Source of the DNA: Spirochaetota bacterium
GTDB lineage: Bacteria; Spirochaetota; Brevinematia; Brevinematales; Brevinemataceae
Direction of reading: 5' to 3'
NCBI GenBank assembly: GCA_030154445.1
Contig: JAGUQW010000004.1
Span: 100,940 to 164,939 of the forward strand
DNA: 64,000 bases
Below, in pieces: positions 18,804 through 60,566 of this stretch (position 1 is its first letter; every line of letters begins with the position of its first letter). Under the pieces are notes generated by a model. It worked only from the letters and a program-made list of their open reading frames with translations, was not told the origin of the DNA and did not search any database. The position numbers were made by a program, and so were the translations under genes.

Positions 18804-19796
18804 TTATATGTTTAAATCTCGTTTTATCTGCATTGCTATATGGTATCCTAAATTTACAGGAACTGCATTCCCTATCATTTTGTAACCTGTTGCTACATCT
18901 ATATATTTAAATATAAAGTCATCTGGAAACGATTGAATCCTTGCACATTCTCTTACAGATAATCGTCTGTATAAATCTTCATATCCCTGTTTAAAGATTT
19001 GTTTATCTTTTTCTATCTTAATCATTTTAGGAGCCTGAGGGTGTATAGGAGCATGTCTTCCCCCTGCTTGTATGGTAAAAGATGGCTCATCCCAACCACG
19101 CACTCTATTCCTAGACATAAAGATTGTTGAAAAAAAACCTGTCATATACTCATGATTGAAAATTTTTAAGTTTTTATTAGCTTTATTCTTATCAAGAGCT
19201 GGAACTGCTTTATCGTTTAGATCCCAAATAACATCTTTTAATATATTGTTTTTTTTGTTAACAACAGGATCTATTTTAAAAACTTTTGTTGTAATATCTT
19301 TTCTATAACCAACAAAAACAACTCTTTTTCTATCCTGAGCAACATCATAATCGTGTGCATTTAATAGTTGAAATGAGATGTTATATCCTATTTTTTCAAA
19401 AGAGTCTACTATAAAATCAACAAAATTTTTGTGTTTTGAATGTAACATTCCTGATACATTTTCAGCTACAAAAAACATAGGCTTTTTATCACGAACAATT
19501 CTTATATAATCTAAAAACAATTGTCCTCTTTGATCTTCCTGTCCTAATCGTTTTCCAGCCTCGCTAAAACTTTGACAAGGTGGTCCACCAATAATACCAT
19601 GTATATTATCGGGAATTTCATTAGACAAAATATTTCTAATATCTCTTGTTTCTAAAGGTGTGTTCGGAAAATTAAAACGAAAAGTATCCCAAATAGTTTT
19701 ATCAAATTCATTTGCCCAAGCAATTTGAAAACCTGCTTTTTTAAATCCTAAATCTAGACCACCACACCCAGAAAATAATGAAACAATATTCATCAT
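18804..19796 (-). CDS. Type II DNA cytosine-5 methyltransferase
   Basis: 330 residues. All main C5-methyltransferase motifs are visible in order: FSGCGGLDLGFKKAGF (I, SAM), GGPPCQSFSEAG (IV, catalytic Cys74), FVAENVSGM (VI), AQDRKRVVFVGY (VIII), and RRLSVRECARIQSFPDDF plus GNAVP (IX/X). The target-recognition region lies between VIII and IX. It follows the nuclease gene by two bases and pairs with it as a restriction-modification system. The partner suggests GGCC as target (inner C methylated in known NgoPII/HaeIII-type enzymes), an inference only. Confidence 0.93.
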   Translation of the reverse strand: MMNIVSLFSGCGGLDLGFKKAGFQIAWANEFDKTIWDTFRFNFPNTPLETRDIRNILSNEIPDNIHGIIGGPPCQSFSEAGKRLGQEDQRGQLFLDYIRIVRDKKPMFFVAENVSGMLHSKHKNFVDFIVDSFEKIGYNISFQLLNAHDYDVAQDRKRVVFVGYRKDITTKVFKIDPVVNKKNNILKDVIWDLNDKAVPALDKNKANKNLKIFNHEYMTGFFSTIFMSRNRVRGWDEPSFTIQAGGRHAPIHPQAPKMIKIEKDKQIFKQGYEDLYRRLSVRECARIQSFPDDFIFKYIDVATGYKMIGNAVPVNLGYHIAMQIKRDLNI

Positions 19797-19798
19797 TA

Positions 19799-20635
19799 TT
19801 ATAATTTCCCAATAAAAATATGTTTTGCCTTTAACAATTGAGCTGGATTGTTGGGATTTTTAATTTCAATATTTTTTATACTAATAATAGAAGAATTTTC
19901 TATCTCTTGCCTATTTTTTTCTGGGAAAGACATATATTTATTTTCTAAAATAATACTATTTAAAATATTGTTATTTAAGCCTTCAAGATAAGAAAAAACT
20001 TTATTTGGATGTTCTATTCCCCACATACCTCTAATACGAAAATATGTGATTTCTAAAGGATCTACTTTATTAATCCTCCCAAGTTCTTGTGTCTCAGAAA
20101 ATTCAACACCCTGTATGTCGTTTATACCGTTAGCAATAAAATCTTTAATTTTTTGATATGTAGCATAATCGGCTGCATAACAATCTCCATACAAAAACCA
20201 CAAAGAGTGAATCTCATTTGTTTTGTTAATATTTCCAATCGTATAAATTAGATCTTTTTCTATCCATTTATCTTCACATTCTCTACACGCTTTATTGATA
20301 AGAGGGTCATTATTATATAATTTATTTTTAGGGAAAGAACTATTCAAAGCTATAGAACTAGAAGTGCTTTCTAATTTTTTAACCTCAATAGCATCACTAT
20401 CTTTTAAAATAAAATCAGGGGAATTGTTAGTGTTTCCTAAATAAGAAAAAAAATGTGTATATATTCTATCTTTATCTTCTTTTGATAGATGAATAGAATC
20501 ACAAAACAAATCTTTAATATAGTATTCCAGAATATCACCTGTTACTTGTATTTTATTTTTACTTCTATAATGATCTACAATGGATATATCTTTATTTTTA
20601 GCAAAATTAAGTATAGCTTTTAAGATATTTGCCAT
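19799..20635 (-). CDS. NgoPII-like type II restriction endonuclease
   Basis: 278 residues. A PD-(D/E)xK core is visible: PDF at residues 73-75 and EVKK at 84-87, in SPDFILKDSDAIEVKKLES. Overall sequence character, length, and position directly before a C5 methyltransferase fit the NgoPII restriction-endonuclease family, whose known members cut GGCC. A CREC motif around residue 119 and GIEHPNKVFSYL in the C-terminal part may help in fold or recognition. It is the first gene of the pair; methyltransferase translation probably couples to it. GGCC sites do occur in the window, for example in the V-ATPase operon, so protection by the methyltransferase is needed if the specificity is right. Confidence 0.8.
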   Translation of the reverse strand: MANILKAILNFAKNKDISIVDHYRSKNKIQVTGDILEYYIKDLFCDSIHLSKEDKDRIYTHFFSYLGNTNNSPDFILKDSDAIEVKKLESTSSSIALNSSFPKNKLYNNDPLINKACRECEDKWIEKDLIYTIGNINKTNEIHSLWFLYGDCYAADYATYQKIKDFIANGINDIQGVEFSETQELGRINKVDPLEITYFRIRGMWGIEHPNKVFSYLEGLNNNILNSIILENKYMSFPEKNRQEIENSSIISIKNIEIKNPNNPAQLLKAKHIFIGKL

Positions 20636-20741
20636 ATTGACTCCAATTTATATTTTATAAATTATATCATATTTAGGATAATATATCAATCGAAACTAAT
20701 CTAACTACAAACTAGAAAAATTCTTTTAAAACTAAAAAAGA

Positions 20742-20770
20742 TTGATAATCTTACAATTATATCGTATACT
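20742..20770 (+). promoter_or_regulatory. Strong promoter of small RNA unit, copy 1
   Basis: TTGATA (20742-20747), a 17-base spacer and TATACT (20765-20770). The same arrangement occurs at copy 2 with a perfect TATAAT, and both elements lie within the duplicated block. Confidence 0.75.
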
Positions 20771-20775
20771 TAATG

Positions 20776-20856
20776 ATGGTTAATTCATTTGAGGTAGTAG
20801 CTCTTTAAGAGTCACTCGATAGGACAAACGCTAGTATTATGCTAGCGTTTCTTTTT
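20776..20856 (+). ncRNA. Novel small RNA candidate, copy 1 (about 81 nt), possibly encoding a 10-residue leaderless peptide
   Basis: The predicted start, 6 bases after the -10 box, falls on an ATG (20776) that opens a short frame MVNSFEVVAL ending at TAA 20806-20808. A hairpin covers about 20796-20816 with the stop codon in its loop; here one A-C mismatch interrupts the stem. The RNA ends in the hairpin aaacgctag/ctagcgttt (20826-20850) plus a T-tract. The whole block recurs at 23127. No known RNA family is recognised. It lies about 140 bases before, and divergent from, the restriction gene. Confidence 0.6.
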
Positions 20857-20990
20857 ACCTTATATAAAGTTTTAATCGAAGAACTGGTATCTTGTCCTGT
20901 AACAAAAGTAAATAATTCAAGATTATTACTTGTTAGCCATATAAAACCATGGGCAGAATCCAATAAAAATATCTTGACAATATAATAATA
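20809..20990 (-). other. Open frame without a start codon between the small RNA and the next promoter
   Basis: On the - strand a frame is open for about 60 codons and reads in part DSAHGFIWLTSNNLELFTFV and then TGQDTSSSIKTLYKV. It has no ATG or ribosome site and runs into the small-RNA terminator. It may be decayed coding DNA or a chance frame in A+T-rich DNA. This is the only content I see between 20857 and 20973. Confidence 0.2.
20826..20856 (+). terminator. Terminator of small RNA unit, copy 1
   Basis: Nine-base perfect stem (aaacgctag / ctagcgttt), seven-base loop and the tail ctttttt-like run. It is identical at copy 2. Confidence 0.85.
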
Positions 20991-21011
20991 ATATGCTATT
21001 ATTATATTGTC
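20974..21011 (+). promoter_or_regulatory. Promoter embedded in a perfect 15-bp-arm palindrome (operator candidate)
   Basis: TTGACA (20974-20979), 17-base spacer, TATTAT (20997-21002). The inverted repeat at 20976-21011 has arms gacaatataataata and tattattatattgtc around a 6-base centre, so it covers the -35, spacer, -10 and the start region. A dimeric repressor binding here would block the promoter of the following gene pair. Confidence 0.65.
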
Positions 21012-21013
21012 AT

Positions 21014-21111
21014 ACTATATCTGCGTATAAGATATAGTAAGGTAAAGCAATTGAAGAATTTCATGTTCTTTAATAACGATGATTCCTATTTTTTATAGGG
21101 ATCTTTTTTTT
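21014..21111 (+). ncRNA. Structured leader with intrinsic terminator before the RarA-C/PTS pair
   Basis: From the start near 21009 the leader contains a 9-bp hairpin (actatatct / agatatagt, 21014-21038), a less structured middle and a 9-bp terminator hairpin (21081-21103) followed by eight T (21104-21111). The first gene begins only 33 bases later. The arrangement fits transcription attenuation, a riboswitch, or a stand-alone small RNA. I do not recognise a BglG-type antiterminator site, T-box or known riboswitch core in it. Confidence 0.5.
21081..21111 (+). terminator. Leader terminator upstream of 21145
   Basis: Stem gattcctat / atagggatc with one G-T pair, five-base T loop and eight terminal T; lies between the promoter at 20974 and the gene it should serve. 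Confidence 0.75.
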
Positions 21112-21144
21112 AAATACAATTAAACAATTATTAAAGGAGAACAT

Positions 21145-21759
21145 ATGAACACACCATTTATTAATGATCCATGGGCTAAAATAACTACTAGAAATGGATT
21201 TCAAGGAGATGAAATAATTTCATCTTTACAAAAATCAATACGCAGAAGTTTAACAGAAGAGGCTTGTCAATTCGCATATGAAATGTACATAACTTCTCCT
21301 CAAATGGAAGAGAAATTATGGAGAAGATTGATTGCTATTTCCGTAGAAGATATTGGAATGGGCGATATTAATGCTAGTCAAATTATTAATAATCTTAGCC
21401 AAATGAGAAAAAATTTCGCTTATAGTGATGGGGATAGATCAATATTTTTTATTCATGCTATCAGATATCTTTGTGAATGTGAAAAAGACAGATCTACTGA
21501 TCTTTTAAAAAATATTATCATCAAAAGCTTTGCAATGGGCAAAATTCCTACGATTCCAGATTATGCACTTGATAAACACACAGTTCGAGGAGCAACAATG
21601 GGAAGAGACTCTTTTCACTTTCTAAATGAAGCTAGTATGGTCGTACCGCAAAAGAAAGTTTCTAATAACTACAAAGAGCGATATAATAAAATTTTAGAAG
21701 AGTATAACCCAAATAAGGTTGTTCCTTCCGCCTTTAAGTTTAATACATGGCAAGAATAG
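21145..21759 (+). CDS. Stand-alone RarA/MgsA C-terminal-domain-like protein
   Basis: 204 residues with an aaaggag site. It resembles only the C-terminal, tetramerising part of the replication-associated recombination ATPase RarA/MgsA: KLWRRLIAISVEDIGMGDIN matches the ARRL-x-x-x-SEDIG signature, and FFIHAIRYLCECEKDRSTD the following helix. There is no Walker A or B motif, so it cannot be an ATPase itself. The C-terminal LDKHTVRGATMGRDSFHFLN is a second conserved-looking segment. Function unknown; it may modulate RarA or another partner. It lies 13 bases before the PTS permease and is likely co-transcribed with it. Confidence 0.65.
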   Translation: MNTPFINDPWAKITTRNGFQGDEIISSLQKSIRRSLTEEACQFAYEMYITSPQMEEKLWRRLIAISVEDIGMGDINASQIINNLSQMRKNFAYSDGDRSIFFIHAIRYLCECEKDRSTDLLKNIIIKSFAMGKIPTIPDYALDKHTVRGATMGRDSFHFLNEASMVVPQKKVSNNYKERYNKILEEYNPNKVVPSAFKFNTWQE

Positions 21760-21772
21760 ATAGGAGTATGTT

Positions 21773-23041
21773 ATGAAAAGTTTTATGGATAGATTACTAA
21801 TTTTTGGAGAAATAATAGGTAATCAACGACATTTGCGTTCTATTTCTACCGGTATGATGATGACTTTACCATTTATGGTTGTTGGCGCATTTTTCTTAAT
21901 TATTGCAAATCCCCCAATCCAATTAGATTTAATAGATATCAATACTTCTAATATTTTATTACAAATATTGATAAATTGGAAAAAATTTACTATAACCCAT
22001 TATGATGTGTTGGTTACACCTTTTCATTTAACAATGGGAATGATAGGATTACTCAATGCTTTTACTATAGCATATACCCTTGCACAAGAGTATAAACTTA
22101 ATACTACAATTTCAGGGCTTATTTCTACTATTACATTTTTAATGGTCGTTGCACCTATAGAAAATGGAAATATTTCTATAGAATATTTAGGTACTAATGG
22201 ATTATTTACAGCGATTATTGTTTCACTTTTATCTGTTGAAATCACTAAATTTATAAAAAATAAAAAAATAGAATTTACTCTTGACAAGTCTATTCCACCT
22301 GCAATAGCTGTATTTATTAATTCTCTATTACCATTATTATTGAATATATTAATAATATATGGAATAAGTTTAGTTGTATTTTCTATCACGGGCGTCATTT
22401 TCCCCGTATTTATTATGGAGTCTTTATCTCCTGTGTTATTTATAGGAAATAATTTATTTGGCTATATAGCAATTTTAGTATTTGGAAATATTTTATGGAT
22501 TTTTGGTATTAATGGAACTTCCATTATTTTTCCTATTCTATTTTCCTTAGGAATTAATAATACAGGAATTAATACAGAATTATTTAATAGTGGACAAGAA
22601 CCAACTATGGTAATGAATCTACAAATGTTTAGATATTATGCATTAGGAGGAGCTGGTAATACTTTGGGACTCACCTTACTTATGTTAAACAGTAAAGTTG
22701 CTCAAATGAGAACAGTCGGCAAAATTGCAATTATCCCTGGAATCTGTGGTATTAATGAACCTATTATTTTTGGATTGCCTATTGTTCTGAATCCAATACT
22801 AGGGATTCCCTTTATTTTAATGCCTATTATAACTTCATTAATAGGATTCTATGCACAAGAATTAGGATTTGTTTCTTTAGGATATATGGTTGATCCATCT
22901 TTTACACCATTTTTTATTCAGATGTTTTTATCTGCTTTAGATTGGAGAAATGTTCTATTATCCTTCTTCATAGTTTTTGTTAGTGTTCTTGTTTATTTAC
23001 CATTCTTCAAACTCTATGAAAAACAAATCTCTCCTAAATAA
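21773..23041 (+). CDS. PTS EIIC permease, cellobiose/lichenan (CelB) type
   Basis: 422 residues, about ten membrane helices, preceded by taggag. N-terminal FGEIIGNQRHLRSISTGMMM and TLPFMVVGAFFLIIANPP match the EIIC family start; IPGICGINEPIIFGLPIVLN contains the conserved NEP(I/V)xFG sugar-binding motif. It should carry and, with EIIA and EIIB, phosphorylate a beta-glucoside or chitobiose-type disaccharide. No EIIA, EIIB, HPr or phospho-glycosidase is beside it; these would have to be supplied from elsewhere. Its link with a RarA-C-like protein and the repeats on both sides suggest acquired DNA. Confidence 0.88.
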   Translation: MKSFMDRLLIFGEIIGNQRHLRSISTGMMMTLPFMVVGAFFLIIANPPIQLDLIDINTSNILLQILINWKKFTITHYDVLVTPFHLTMGMIGLLNAFTIAYTLAQEYKLNTTISGLISTITFLMVVAPIENGNISIEYLGTNGLFTAIIVSLLSVEITKFIKNKKIEFTLDKSIPPAIAVFINSLLPLLLNILIIYGISLVVFSITGVIFPVFIMESLSPVLFIGNNLFGYIAILVFGNILWIFGINGTSIIFPILFSLGINNTGINTELFNSGQEPTMVMNLQMFRYYALGGAGNTLGLTLLMLNSKVAQMRTVGKIAIIPGICGINEPIIFGLPIVLNPILGIPFILMPIITSLIGFYAQELGFVSLGYMVDPSFTPFFIQMFLSALDWRNVLLSFFIVFVSVLVYLPFFKLYEKQISPK

Positions 23042-23092
23042 ATAGCTATTTAACAAAATAGTAAATCAATTAGTTATAAAAAATAAAAAAGA

Positions 23093-23121
23093 TTGATAAT
23101 CTTACTATTATATCGTATAAT
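23093..23121 (+). promoter_or_regulatory. Strong promoter of small RNA unit, copy 2
   Basis: TTGATA (23093-23098), a 17-base spacer and a perfect TATAAT (23116-23121). It differs from copy 1 only by spacer and -10 substitutions, with spacing kept. Confidence 0.8.
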
Positions 23122-23126
23122 TAATT

Positions 23127-23207
23127 ATGGTTAATTCATTTGAGGTAGTGGCTCTTTAAGAGTCACTCGATAGGACAAACGCTAGTATTATGCTAGCGTT
23201 TCTTTTT
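23127..23207 (+). ncRNA. Novel small RNA candidate, copy 2 (about 81 nt), possibly encoding a 10-residue leaderless peptide
   Basis: The ATG at 23127, 6 bases after the -10, again opens MVNSFEVVAL and stops at 23157-23159. Within the transcript the only difference from copy 1 is GTA to GTG in the peptide frame: silent for the peptide, while it turns the A-C mismatch of the internal hairpin into a G-C pair (9-bp stem 23147-23155 / 23159-23167, stop codon in the loop region). The terminator (23177-23201 plus T-tract) ends 67 bases before hemW, so read-through could feed hemW. Confidence 0.62.
23177..23207 (+). terminator. Terminator of small RNA unit, copy 2
   Basis: Identical hairpin to copy 1: aaacgctag / ctagcgttt with a seven-base loop and ctttttt-like tail. 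Confidence 0.85.
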
Positions 23208-23273
23208 ATCTTTTATATTGATTCTATTTTTACTTTCTTTTATAATAGACAAAACCACTTCCAAGGATCTTAT

Positions 23274-60329: not shown

Positions 60330-60566
60330 TTAACATTTTTTATTGAATTTTTTCATTAATCCTTTCAATTCATTTAATGACGATTTATTCTGCGCTTGCT
60401 GATTTTCCTTTGTGATTTCTTGAAATATTTCTTGCCTAAAAATACGCACTTCTTTTGGAGCTATAATTCCAATTTTTACTTGATCAGGTTTAATATGAAC
60501 TATTTTAATTTCTATTTCATTATTAATGATAATAGATTCGTTTTCCTTCCGTGATAAAACAAGCAC
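60330..60566 (-). CDS. csrA: Carbon storage regulator CsrA, translational repressor
   Basis: 78 residues from a GTG at 60564-60566, preceded by aaggagg 6 bases upstream. A 13-codon longer frame to 60605 would add MLYRDFVISRRKA, which is unlike CsrA. LVLSRKENESIIINNEIEIK and VKIGIIAPKEVRIFRQEIF are the canonical RNA-binding strands. CsrA binds GGA-type sites in leader RNAs; in spirochaetes and Bacillus it limits flagellin translation and is held by FliW. It lies 45 bases after fliW in the same unit. Confidence 0.95.
   Translation of the reverse strand: MLVLSRKENESIIINNEIEIKIVHIKPDQVKIGIIAPKEVRIFRQEIFQEITKENQQAQNKSSLNELKGLMKKFNKKC

What the first reader, a model, noticed from the sequence alone, without database searches (positions are those of the whole stretch)
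20733..23208. Two near-identical promoter-RNA-terminator units: a new twin small RNA with a possible 10-residue leaderless peptide
Seen: two blocks of about 125 bp, 2351 bp apart, each with TTGATA-17-TAT(A/T) type promoter, a transcript of about 81 nt and the same terminator. The predicted start of each RNA falls on an ATG opening MVNSFEVVAL, followed by a stop in the loop of an internal hairpin. The only difference inside the transcripts is GTA versus GTG: silent for the peptide and turning an A-C mismatch into a G-C pair. Inference: selection on the RNA or on the peptide. No known RNA family is recognised. Copy 2 ends 67 bases before hemW, copy 1 lies divergent from a restriction gene.
Basis: partly seen in the sequence, partly recalled or inferred. 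Interest (0 to 1): 0.78.

Follow-up and report, generated by a model that had tools for sequence, protein, structure and literature searches.

The report
Duplicated small RNA gene in Brevinema
A short gene for an 81-nucleotide RNA occurs twice in this spirochaete because foreign sugar-transport DNA inserted between two copies of it; the RNA's hairpin is kept intact across the three Brevinema genomes held, but there is no good sign that it makes the suggested 10-residue peptide.

Summary
Two blocks (139 bp, 95% identical, 2351 bp apart) each carry a sigma-70-type promoter, a predicted 81-nt RNA with two hairpins, and an intrinsic terminator. Within the RNA the copies differ at one base (A24G). 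The unit occurs in all three held genomes of the genus (Brevinema) and was not detected in other Spirochaetota searched, Rfam, phages, plasmids or viral contigs. A sister species has one copy between the same neighbours (NgoPII restriction gene and hemW), so in this genome the unit was duplicated around a horizontally acquired cassette (MgsA_C-like protein + PTS EIIC; the former 75% identical to a Cetobacterium plasmid protein). A third species has lost the unit at hemW, leaving its terminator, and keeps an intact copy beside uvrB. RNA identity with that species (89-94%) exceeds that of the adjoining promoter region (64-71%) and of genes (75-76%). The internal hairpin shows two compensatory changes, one caught half-way: A-U (relatives), A.C (copy 1), G-C (copy 2). 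The 10-codon frame changes amino acid at two of its four varying sites, and two of the four are explained by the hairpin, so peptide selection is not supported. Best reading: a genus-restricted stand-alone small RNA, probably trans-acting, with sibling copies; target unknown.

The parts
20728..20866 (+). copy 1 of the duplicated block (whole repeat)
   Evidence: direct repeat D1, 95% identical to 23079-23217
20742..20770 (+). promoter of copy 1: TTGATA-17-TATACT
   Evidence: hexamers and 17-nt spacing conserved in G001 and G002
20776..20856 (+). predicted 81-nt small RNA, copy 1
   Evidence: RNA model hit 111 bits
20776..20808 (+). possible 10-codon frame MVNSFEVVAL (selection on the peptide not supported)
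20796..20816 (+). internal hairpin of copy 1, with one A.C mismatch
20826..20856 (+). intrinsic terminator of copy 1
20893..20961 (+). possible remnant of an HNH endonuclease gene inside the insert
   Evidence: weak Pfam HNH_2 match, E 0.011, below cut-off
20867..23078 (+). inserted segment between the two copies, absent from the sister species G001
21145..21759 (+). MgsA_C-like protein gene of the inserted cassette
   Evidence: Pfam PF12002; 75.5% identity to a Cetobacterium somerae plasmid protein
21773..23041 (+). PTS EIIC gene of the inserted cassette
   Evidence: Pfam PF02378; same gene pair in Cetobacterium
23079..23217 (+). copy 2 of the duplicated block (whole repeat)
23093..23121 (+). 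promoter of copy 2: TTGATA-17-TATAAT
23127..23207 (+). predicted 81-nt small RNA, copy 2
   Evidence: RNA model hit 114 bits
23127..23159 (+). possible 10-codon frame MVNSFEVVAL of copy 2 (selection on the peptide not supported)
23147..23167 (+). internal hairpin of copy 2, fully paired
23177..23207 (+). intrinsic terminator of copy 2

Best explanation
Each block is a complete gene for an 81-nt non-coding small RNA: sigma-70 promoter, exposed 5' arm (AUGGUnAAUUnAUUUGAGGUA), 9-bp hairpin, short linker (UCGAnAGGAC), and terminator hairpin with U tract. The RNA most likely acts in trans, pairing with mRNAs through its exposed, nearly invariant 5' arm; this step is inferred and no target is known. 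The two copies are siblings: the single copy next to hemW was duplicated when a PTS/MgsA_C cassette was inserted, probably by homologous recombination through the unit itself (inferred). Shown: duplication, empty site in the sister species, conservation of promoter, hairpins and terminator, compensatory changes, different location in a third species. Inferred: transcription, trans action, seed, route of insertion.
For: Unit found in all three genus genomes. G001 has one copy between the same flanking genes, and the outer flanks of the window's two copies align to the flanks of that one copy (125/140 and 53/66 nt). In G002 the intact unit lies beside uvrB, while the hemW site keeps only a -35-like stretch and the terminator. 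G001-G002: RNA 76/81 identical against 27/42 for the adjacent promoter region (Fisher p = 6e-5), while flanks beyond the unit match no better than shuffled sequence and genes compared with G002 are 75-76% identical. None of the five G001-G002 changes breaks a pair: two are the 22-40 GC/AU exchange, one is 51-75 GU/AU, the other two are unpaired. Position 24-38: A-U in relatives, A.C in copy 1, G-C in copy 2. Predicted unpaired fraction of positions 1-20 is 0.5-0.96.
Against: No transcript data. Only four sequences, so the covariation count is not significant on its own (51 of 500 shuffles reach it). No Hfq was found in this genome by the Pfam model. A search for the complement of the 5' arm gave about as many near-matches as the reversed control, so no target is indicated. 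Part of the G000-G001 similarity reflects a recently exchanged restriction island (RE and methylase 18-21% different at fourfold sites against about 50-60% for hemW and cmk).
Confidence: 0.55

Rival explanations
1. Dual-function RNA: the leaderless frame MVN(S/L)FEV(V/I)AL is translated and the peptide, or its translation, matters.
For: ATG at the predicted +1 and the stop in the hairpin loop are kept in all four copies. Leaderless mRNAs are common in at least one spirochaete, Leptospira interrogans (PMC5243855).
Against: Two of four varying sites are replacements; two of the four are explained by hairpin compensation; the stop lies in an invariant loop that RNA structure alone could keep; +1 is uncertain by a base or two.
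Confidence: 0.12
2. Cis-acting leader or attenuator of the downstream gene (hemW): ribosome movement over the short frame would decide between hairpins.
For: Short frame, then hairpin, then terminator resembles an attenuator; copy 2 and the G001 copy lie just upstream of hemW.
Against: In G002 the unit faces uvrB convergently and the hemW site lacks the RNA body. hemW has its own promoter-like site after the terminator (TTGATT-17-TATAAT, 23218-23246). Copy 1 is about 290 nt from the next gene, which has its own promoter-like site. No alternative antiterminator fold was predicted.
Confidence: 0.08
3. CsrA-sequestering RNA: the ANGGA in the linker (AUAGGAC/ACAGGAC) binds CsrA.
For: CsrA is encoded in this genome (window 60411-60563, minus strand). 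AGGA in the linker is invariant.
Against: Only one GGA per RNA, and not in a hairpin loop; known CsrA sponges carry several (own knowledge).
Confidence: 0.1
4. Recombination border or bidirectional terminator element without a functional RNA; copies are kept only as homology anchors for exchange of restriction and cargo genes between valS and hemW.
For: The unit sits where G000-G001 identity drops from the restriction island (about 90% or more) to hemW (about 80%), its remnant borders a different restriction system in G002, and its copies flank the insert.
Against: Would not explain conserved promoter hexamers and spacing, compensatory changes in the internal hairpin, or the intact copy far away beside uvrB in G002.
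Confidence: 0.15

Closest known systems
Sibling small RNAs (e.g. AbcR1/AbcR2 of Brucella, NgncR_162/163 of Neisseria, duplicated csrB in Vibrio; PMC4211561, PMC5461406, PMC9973317, PMC6262261; abstracts only)
   Same: More than one highly related small RNA gene in one genome; gene duplication is a described origin (csrB).
   Different: No Rfam match; the duplication here flanks an inserted foreign cassette; no target, chaperone or phenotype known.
Dual-function small RNAs (SgrS/SgrT, VcdRP; PMC4021124, PMC8672173; abstracts only, and own knowledge)
   Same: Small RNA that also contains a short open frame.
   Different: 10 codons only (VcdP has 29), no Shine-Dalgarno site ahead of the start, amino acids not preserved, stop inside a hairpin loop.
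Small RNAs of other spirochaetes (Borrelia burgdorferi PMC10319736, Leptospira interrogans PMC5243855)
   Same: Independently transcribed small RNAs, some of similar size, in the same phylum.
   Different: No homologue of this RNA was detected in the 390 other Spirochaetota genomes searched. The vast majority of the L. interrogans sRNAs are reported without an intrinsic terminator, unlike this unit.

Membership tests
Stand-alone intergenic bacterial small RNA | own promoter | tested here: met
   TTGATA/TTGAAA-17-TATACT/TATAAT in all four copies; expression itself not tested
Stand-alone intergenic bacterial small RNA | own intrinsic terminator | tested here: met
   10-11 bp stem plus T tract in all four copies
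Stand-alone intergenic bacterial small RNA | conserved structure, independent of neighbouring genes | tested here: met
   hairpins kept and compensated; neighbour is hemW or uvrB depending on species
Stand-alone intergenic bacterial small RNA | a transcript of the predicted size | not testable with these tools
   no RNA-seq available here
Trans-acting base-pairing small RNA | target mRNAs complementary to the seed | tested here: inconclusive
   near-matches to the complement of the 5' arm about as frequent as the control; shorter seeds not testable this way
Trans-acting base-pairing small RNA of the Hfq-dependent type | Hfq present | tested here: not met
   no Hfq found by Pfam PF17209 in this genome (95% complete); not a requirement for all such RNAs
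Dual-function small RNA | open frame under protein-level selection | tested here: not met
   2 replacements among 4 changed sites; very few changes, so weak
Any described RNA family (Rfam 15) | covariance-model match | tested here: not met
   none at gathering score in the window, none overlapping the units at E up to 5
tracrRNA | anti-repeat complementary to a CRISPR repeat array | tested here: not met
   no cluster of matches to the complement of the 5' arm in any of the three genomes; other parts of the RNA not tested

The most novel reading that the evidence does not exclude
A genus-specific small RNA gene doubles as the recombination anchor for a valS-hemW variable island: its conserved sequence lets restriction systems and metabolic cassettes be swapped by homologous recombination while a working RNA is regenerated on either side.
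Probability: 0.15. Interest if true: 0.55.

Novelty: new member of a known kind. Interest (0 to 1): 0.36.

Why it matters
Regulatory RNAs of Brevinema appear undescribed: one open-access paper in the library holds both 'Brevinema' and 'sRNA', and it is a fish-diet study. This gives a concrete small RNA gene with a checked set of homologues and a natural example of a compensatory change caught half-way between two copies in one genome. It also shows how acquired cargo can go along with duplication of a small RNA gene.

Tried and rejected
Rfam search at gathering and at E up to 5: nothing relevant. DNA search of plasmids (no match) and phages (two weak matches, E 0.4), and exact-pattern search of viral contigs (no match). 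RNA-model search of 393 Spirochaetota genomes: full matches only in the three genus genomes. Extra weak matches in G001 and G002 with laxer filters were fetched and read: nearly all are unrelated terminator hairpins, and one is the start of a thioesterase-like gene. Complement of the 5' arm as a target or CRISPR repeat: no clear excess over control. Minus-strand promoter-like site inside the unit: its -10 box is lost in G002. An extended hemW start inside the terminator loop (23190) is not in frame in G001.

Full report
WHAT IS THERE. Two blocks, 20728-20866 and 23079-23217, are 95% identical over 139 nt and lie 2351 nt apart. Each has a promoter (TTGATA-17-TATACT in copy 1, TTGATA-17-TATAAT in copy 2) and an intrinsic terminator. 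The predicted RNAs, 20776-20856 and 23127-23207, differ at one of 81 positions. The blocks differ at several positions, including promoter bases, and lie inside one 210-kb contig, so an assembly duplicate is unlikely. They are the only copies found in the 1.5-Mb genome. The one soft point is the transcription start: with a 5-nt discriminator (6 nt in G002) the A of the ATG is a plausible +1, but the start could be a base or two off.

WHO HAS IT. The relatives search found strong matches only in the two other genomes of the genus, G001 (92%) and G002 (85%). G001 corresponds to a contig titled uncultured Brevinema sp.. A covariance model built from the four copies scored 110-114 bits on these four and at most 31 bits elsewhere among 393 Spirochaetota genomes. 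A laxer search of 18 genomes of the class gave further weak hits in G001 and G002; on reading they are nearly all unrelated terminator hairpins. The other genus of the family (G003) shows no match and has hemW and valS divergent with almost nothing between them. The simplest reading is that the RNA and the restriction genes beside it came into the valS-hemW gap within Brevinema.

HOW IT BECAME TWIN. In G001 one unit lies between the NgoPII-type restriction gene and hemW. The left flank of the window's copy 1 aligns to the left flank of that unit (125/140) and the right flank of copy 2 to its right flank (53/66). G001 is therefore the empty site, and the segment between the copies is an insertion. 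It carries an MgsA_C-domain protein and a PTS EIIC. The same gene pair is on a Cetobacterium somerae plasmid, with 75.5% identity for the first protein. The nearest EIIC relatives in G001 and G002 are only about 30% identical, while G003 holds a broken fragment at 71%. Just after copy 1 is a possible fragment of an HNH endonuclease (Pfam HNH_2, E 0.011, below cut-off). The likely route is recombination through the unit itself; that step is inferred.

A DIFFERENT PLACE IN G002. G002 has an intact unit between a gene of unknown family (no Pfam match) and uvrB. The uvrB locus of the window's genome has no unit. The hemW-side site in G002 keeps AAAAAAAGATTAACAATCTC (like the unit's -35 region) and the terminator but lacks the RNA body, and carries a different restriction system (HindVP type). 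Each genome thus retains at least one intact unit, though three genomes are few. This also argues against a cis-acting role on hemW.

SELECTION ON THE RNA. G001 against G002: RNA 76/81 identical, adjoining promoter region 27/42 (Fisher p = 6e-5); flanks beyond the unit match no better than shuffled sequence. Genes differ more: uvrB 75% and valS 76% nucleotide identity between the window's genome and G002, with 68% and 55% difference at fourfold sites. The contrast inside one unit shows that recent transfer of the whole unit does not by itself explain the conservation. For G000 against G001 the argument is weaker, because the restriction island itself is unusually similar (18-21% fourfold difference against 50-61% for hemW and cmk), probably from exchange between species.

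STRUCTURE. The internal hairpin (RNA 21-29 with 33-41) has two pairs changed on both sides: 22-40 (GC, AU in G002) and 24-38 (AU in G001 and G002, GC in copy 2, A.C in copy 1); 98.7% of pair cells are canonical. By parsimony U38C came first and A24G restored the pair in copy 2, so the two copies show both stages. The isolated hairpin is -5.1 in copy 1 and -10.6 kcal/mol in copy 2, against -8.9 in G001 and -6.6 in G002. With four sequences the covariation is not significant by shuffling alone (51/500). Folding z-scores of the 81-nt RNAs are -2.2 to -3.6.

THE PEPTIDE. The frame reads MVNSFEVVAL, MVNLFEVVAL, MVNLFEVIAL. Its four variable sites are two silent (one being A24G) and two replacements (S/L, V/I); A24G and the V/I change lie in the hairpin. 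This is what RNA-level selection alone would give. Translation is not excluded: Leptospira interrogans has many leaderless mRNAs (PMC5243855).

MECHANISM. I favour a trans-acting small RNA with an exposed 5' arm (positions 1-20 mostly unpaired in the ensemble) as the pairing surface. No Hfq was found; CsrA is present, and the invariant AGGA in the linker leaves CsrA binding open. No target was indicated by the complement search. These functional steps are inference.

STANDING. It is a new, genus-restricted member of a familiar kind (stand-alone small RNA with sibling copies). The interesting side is the tie to a variable island between valS and hemW.

Noticed in passing
window 20974-21112: The inserted PTS cassette starts with a promoter lying in a 16-bp perfect inverted repeat (TGACAATATAATAATA / TATTATTATATTGTCA, within 20975-21012), followed by a leader of about 100 nt ending in a terminator-like hairpin (21081-21103) before the MgsA_C-like gene: a candidate operator plus attenuator.
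   Followed up: no
window 18804-20635; L023 91-1922: The NgoPII-type restriction and methylase genes are far more similar between two Brevinema species (18-21% fourfold-site difference) than neighbouring hemW and cmk (50-61%), suggesting exchange of the island between species.
   Followed up: partly
L025 1-2190: In a third Brevinema genome (G002) the valS-hemW gap holds a different restriction system (HindVP-type endonuclease plus C5 methylase): a variable site for restriction genes.
   Followed up: partly
window 20893-20961: Possible HNH endonuclease gene remnant (LLLVSHIKPWAESN) right after copy 1; weak Pfam HNH_2 match below cut-off.
   Followed up: partly
window 21145-23041: MgsA_C-domain protein without its ATPase part paired with a PTS EIIC; the same pair is on a Cetobacterium plasmid beside a MurR/RpiR regulator, and the MgsA_C-like protein alone was matched on Enterococcus plasmids (about 70% identity).
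   Followed up: partly
L024 5090-5210: In G002 a 61-bp segment containing the RNA terminator is tandemly duplicated after the unit.
   Followed up: no
L084 472-546: The start of a thioesterase-like gene in G002 (ATGATTCATTCATTTGAAGTGATAGTG) resembles the RNA's 5' end and frame (MIHSFEVIV against MVNSFEVVA); probably chance.
   Followed up: no
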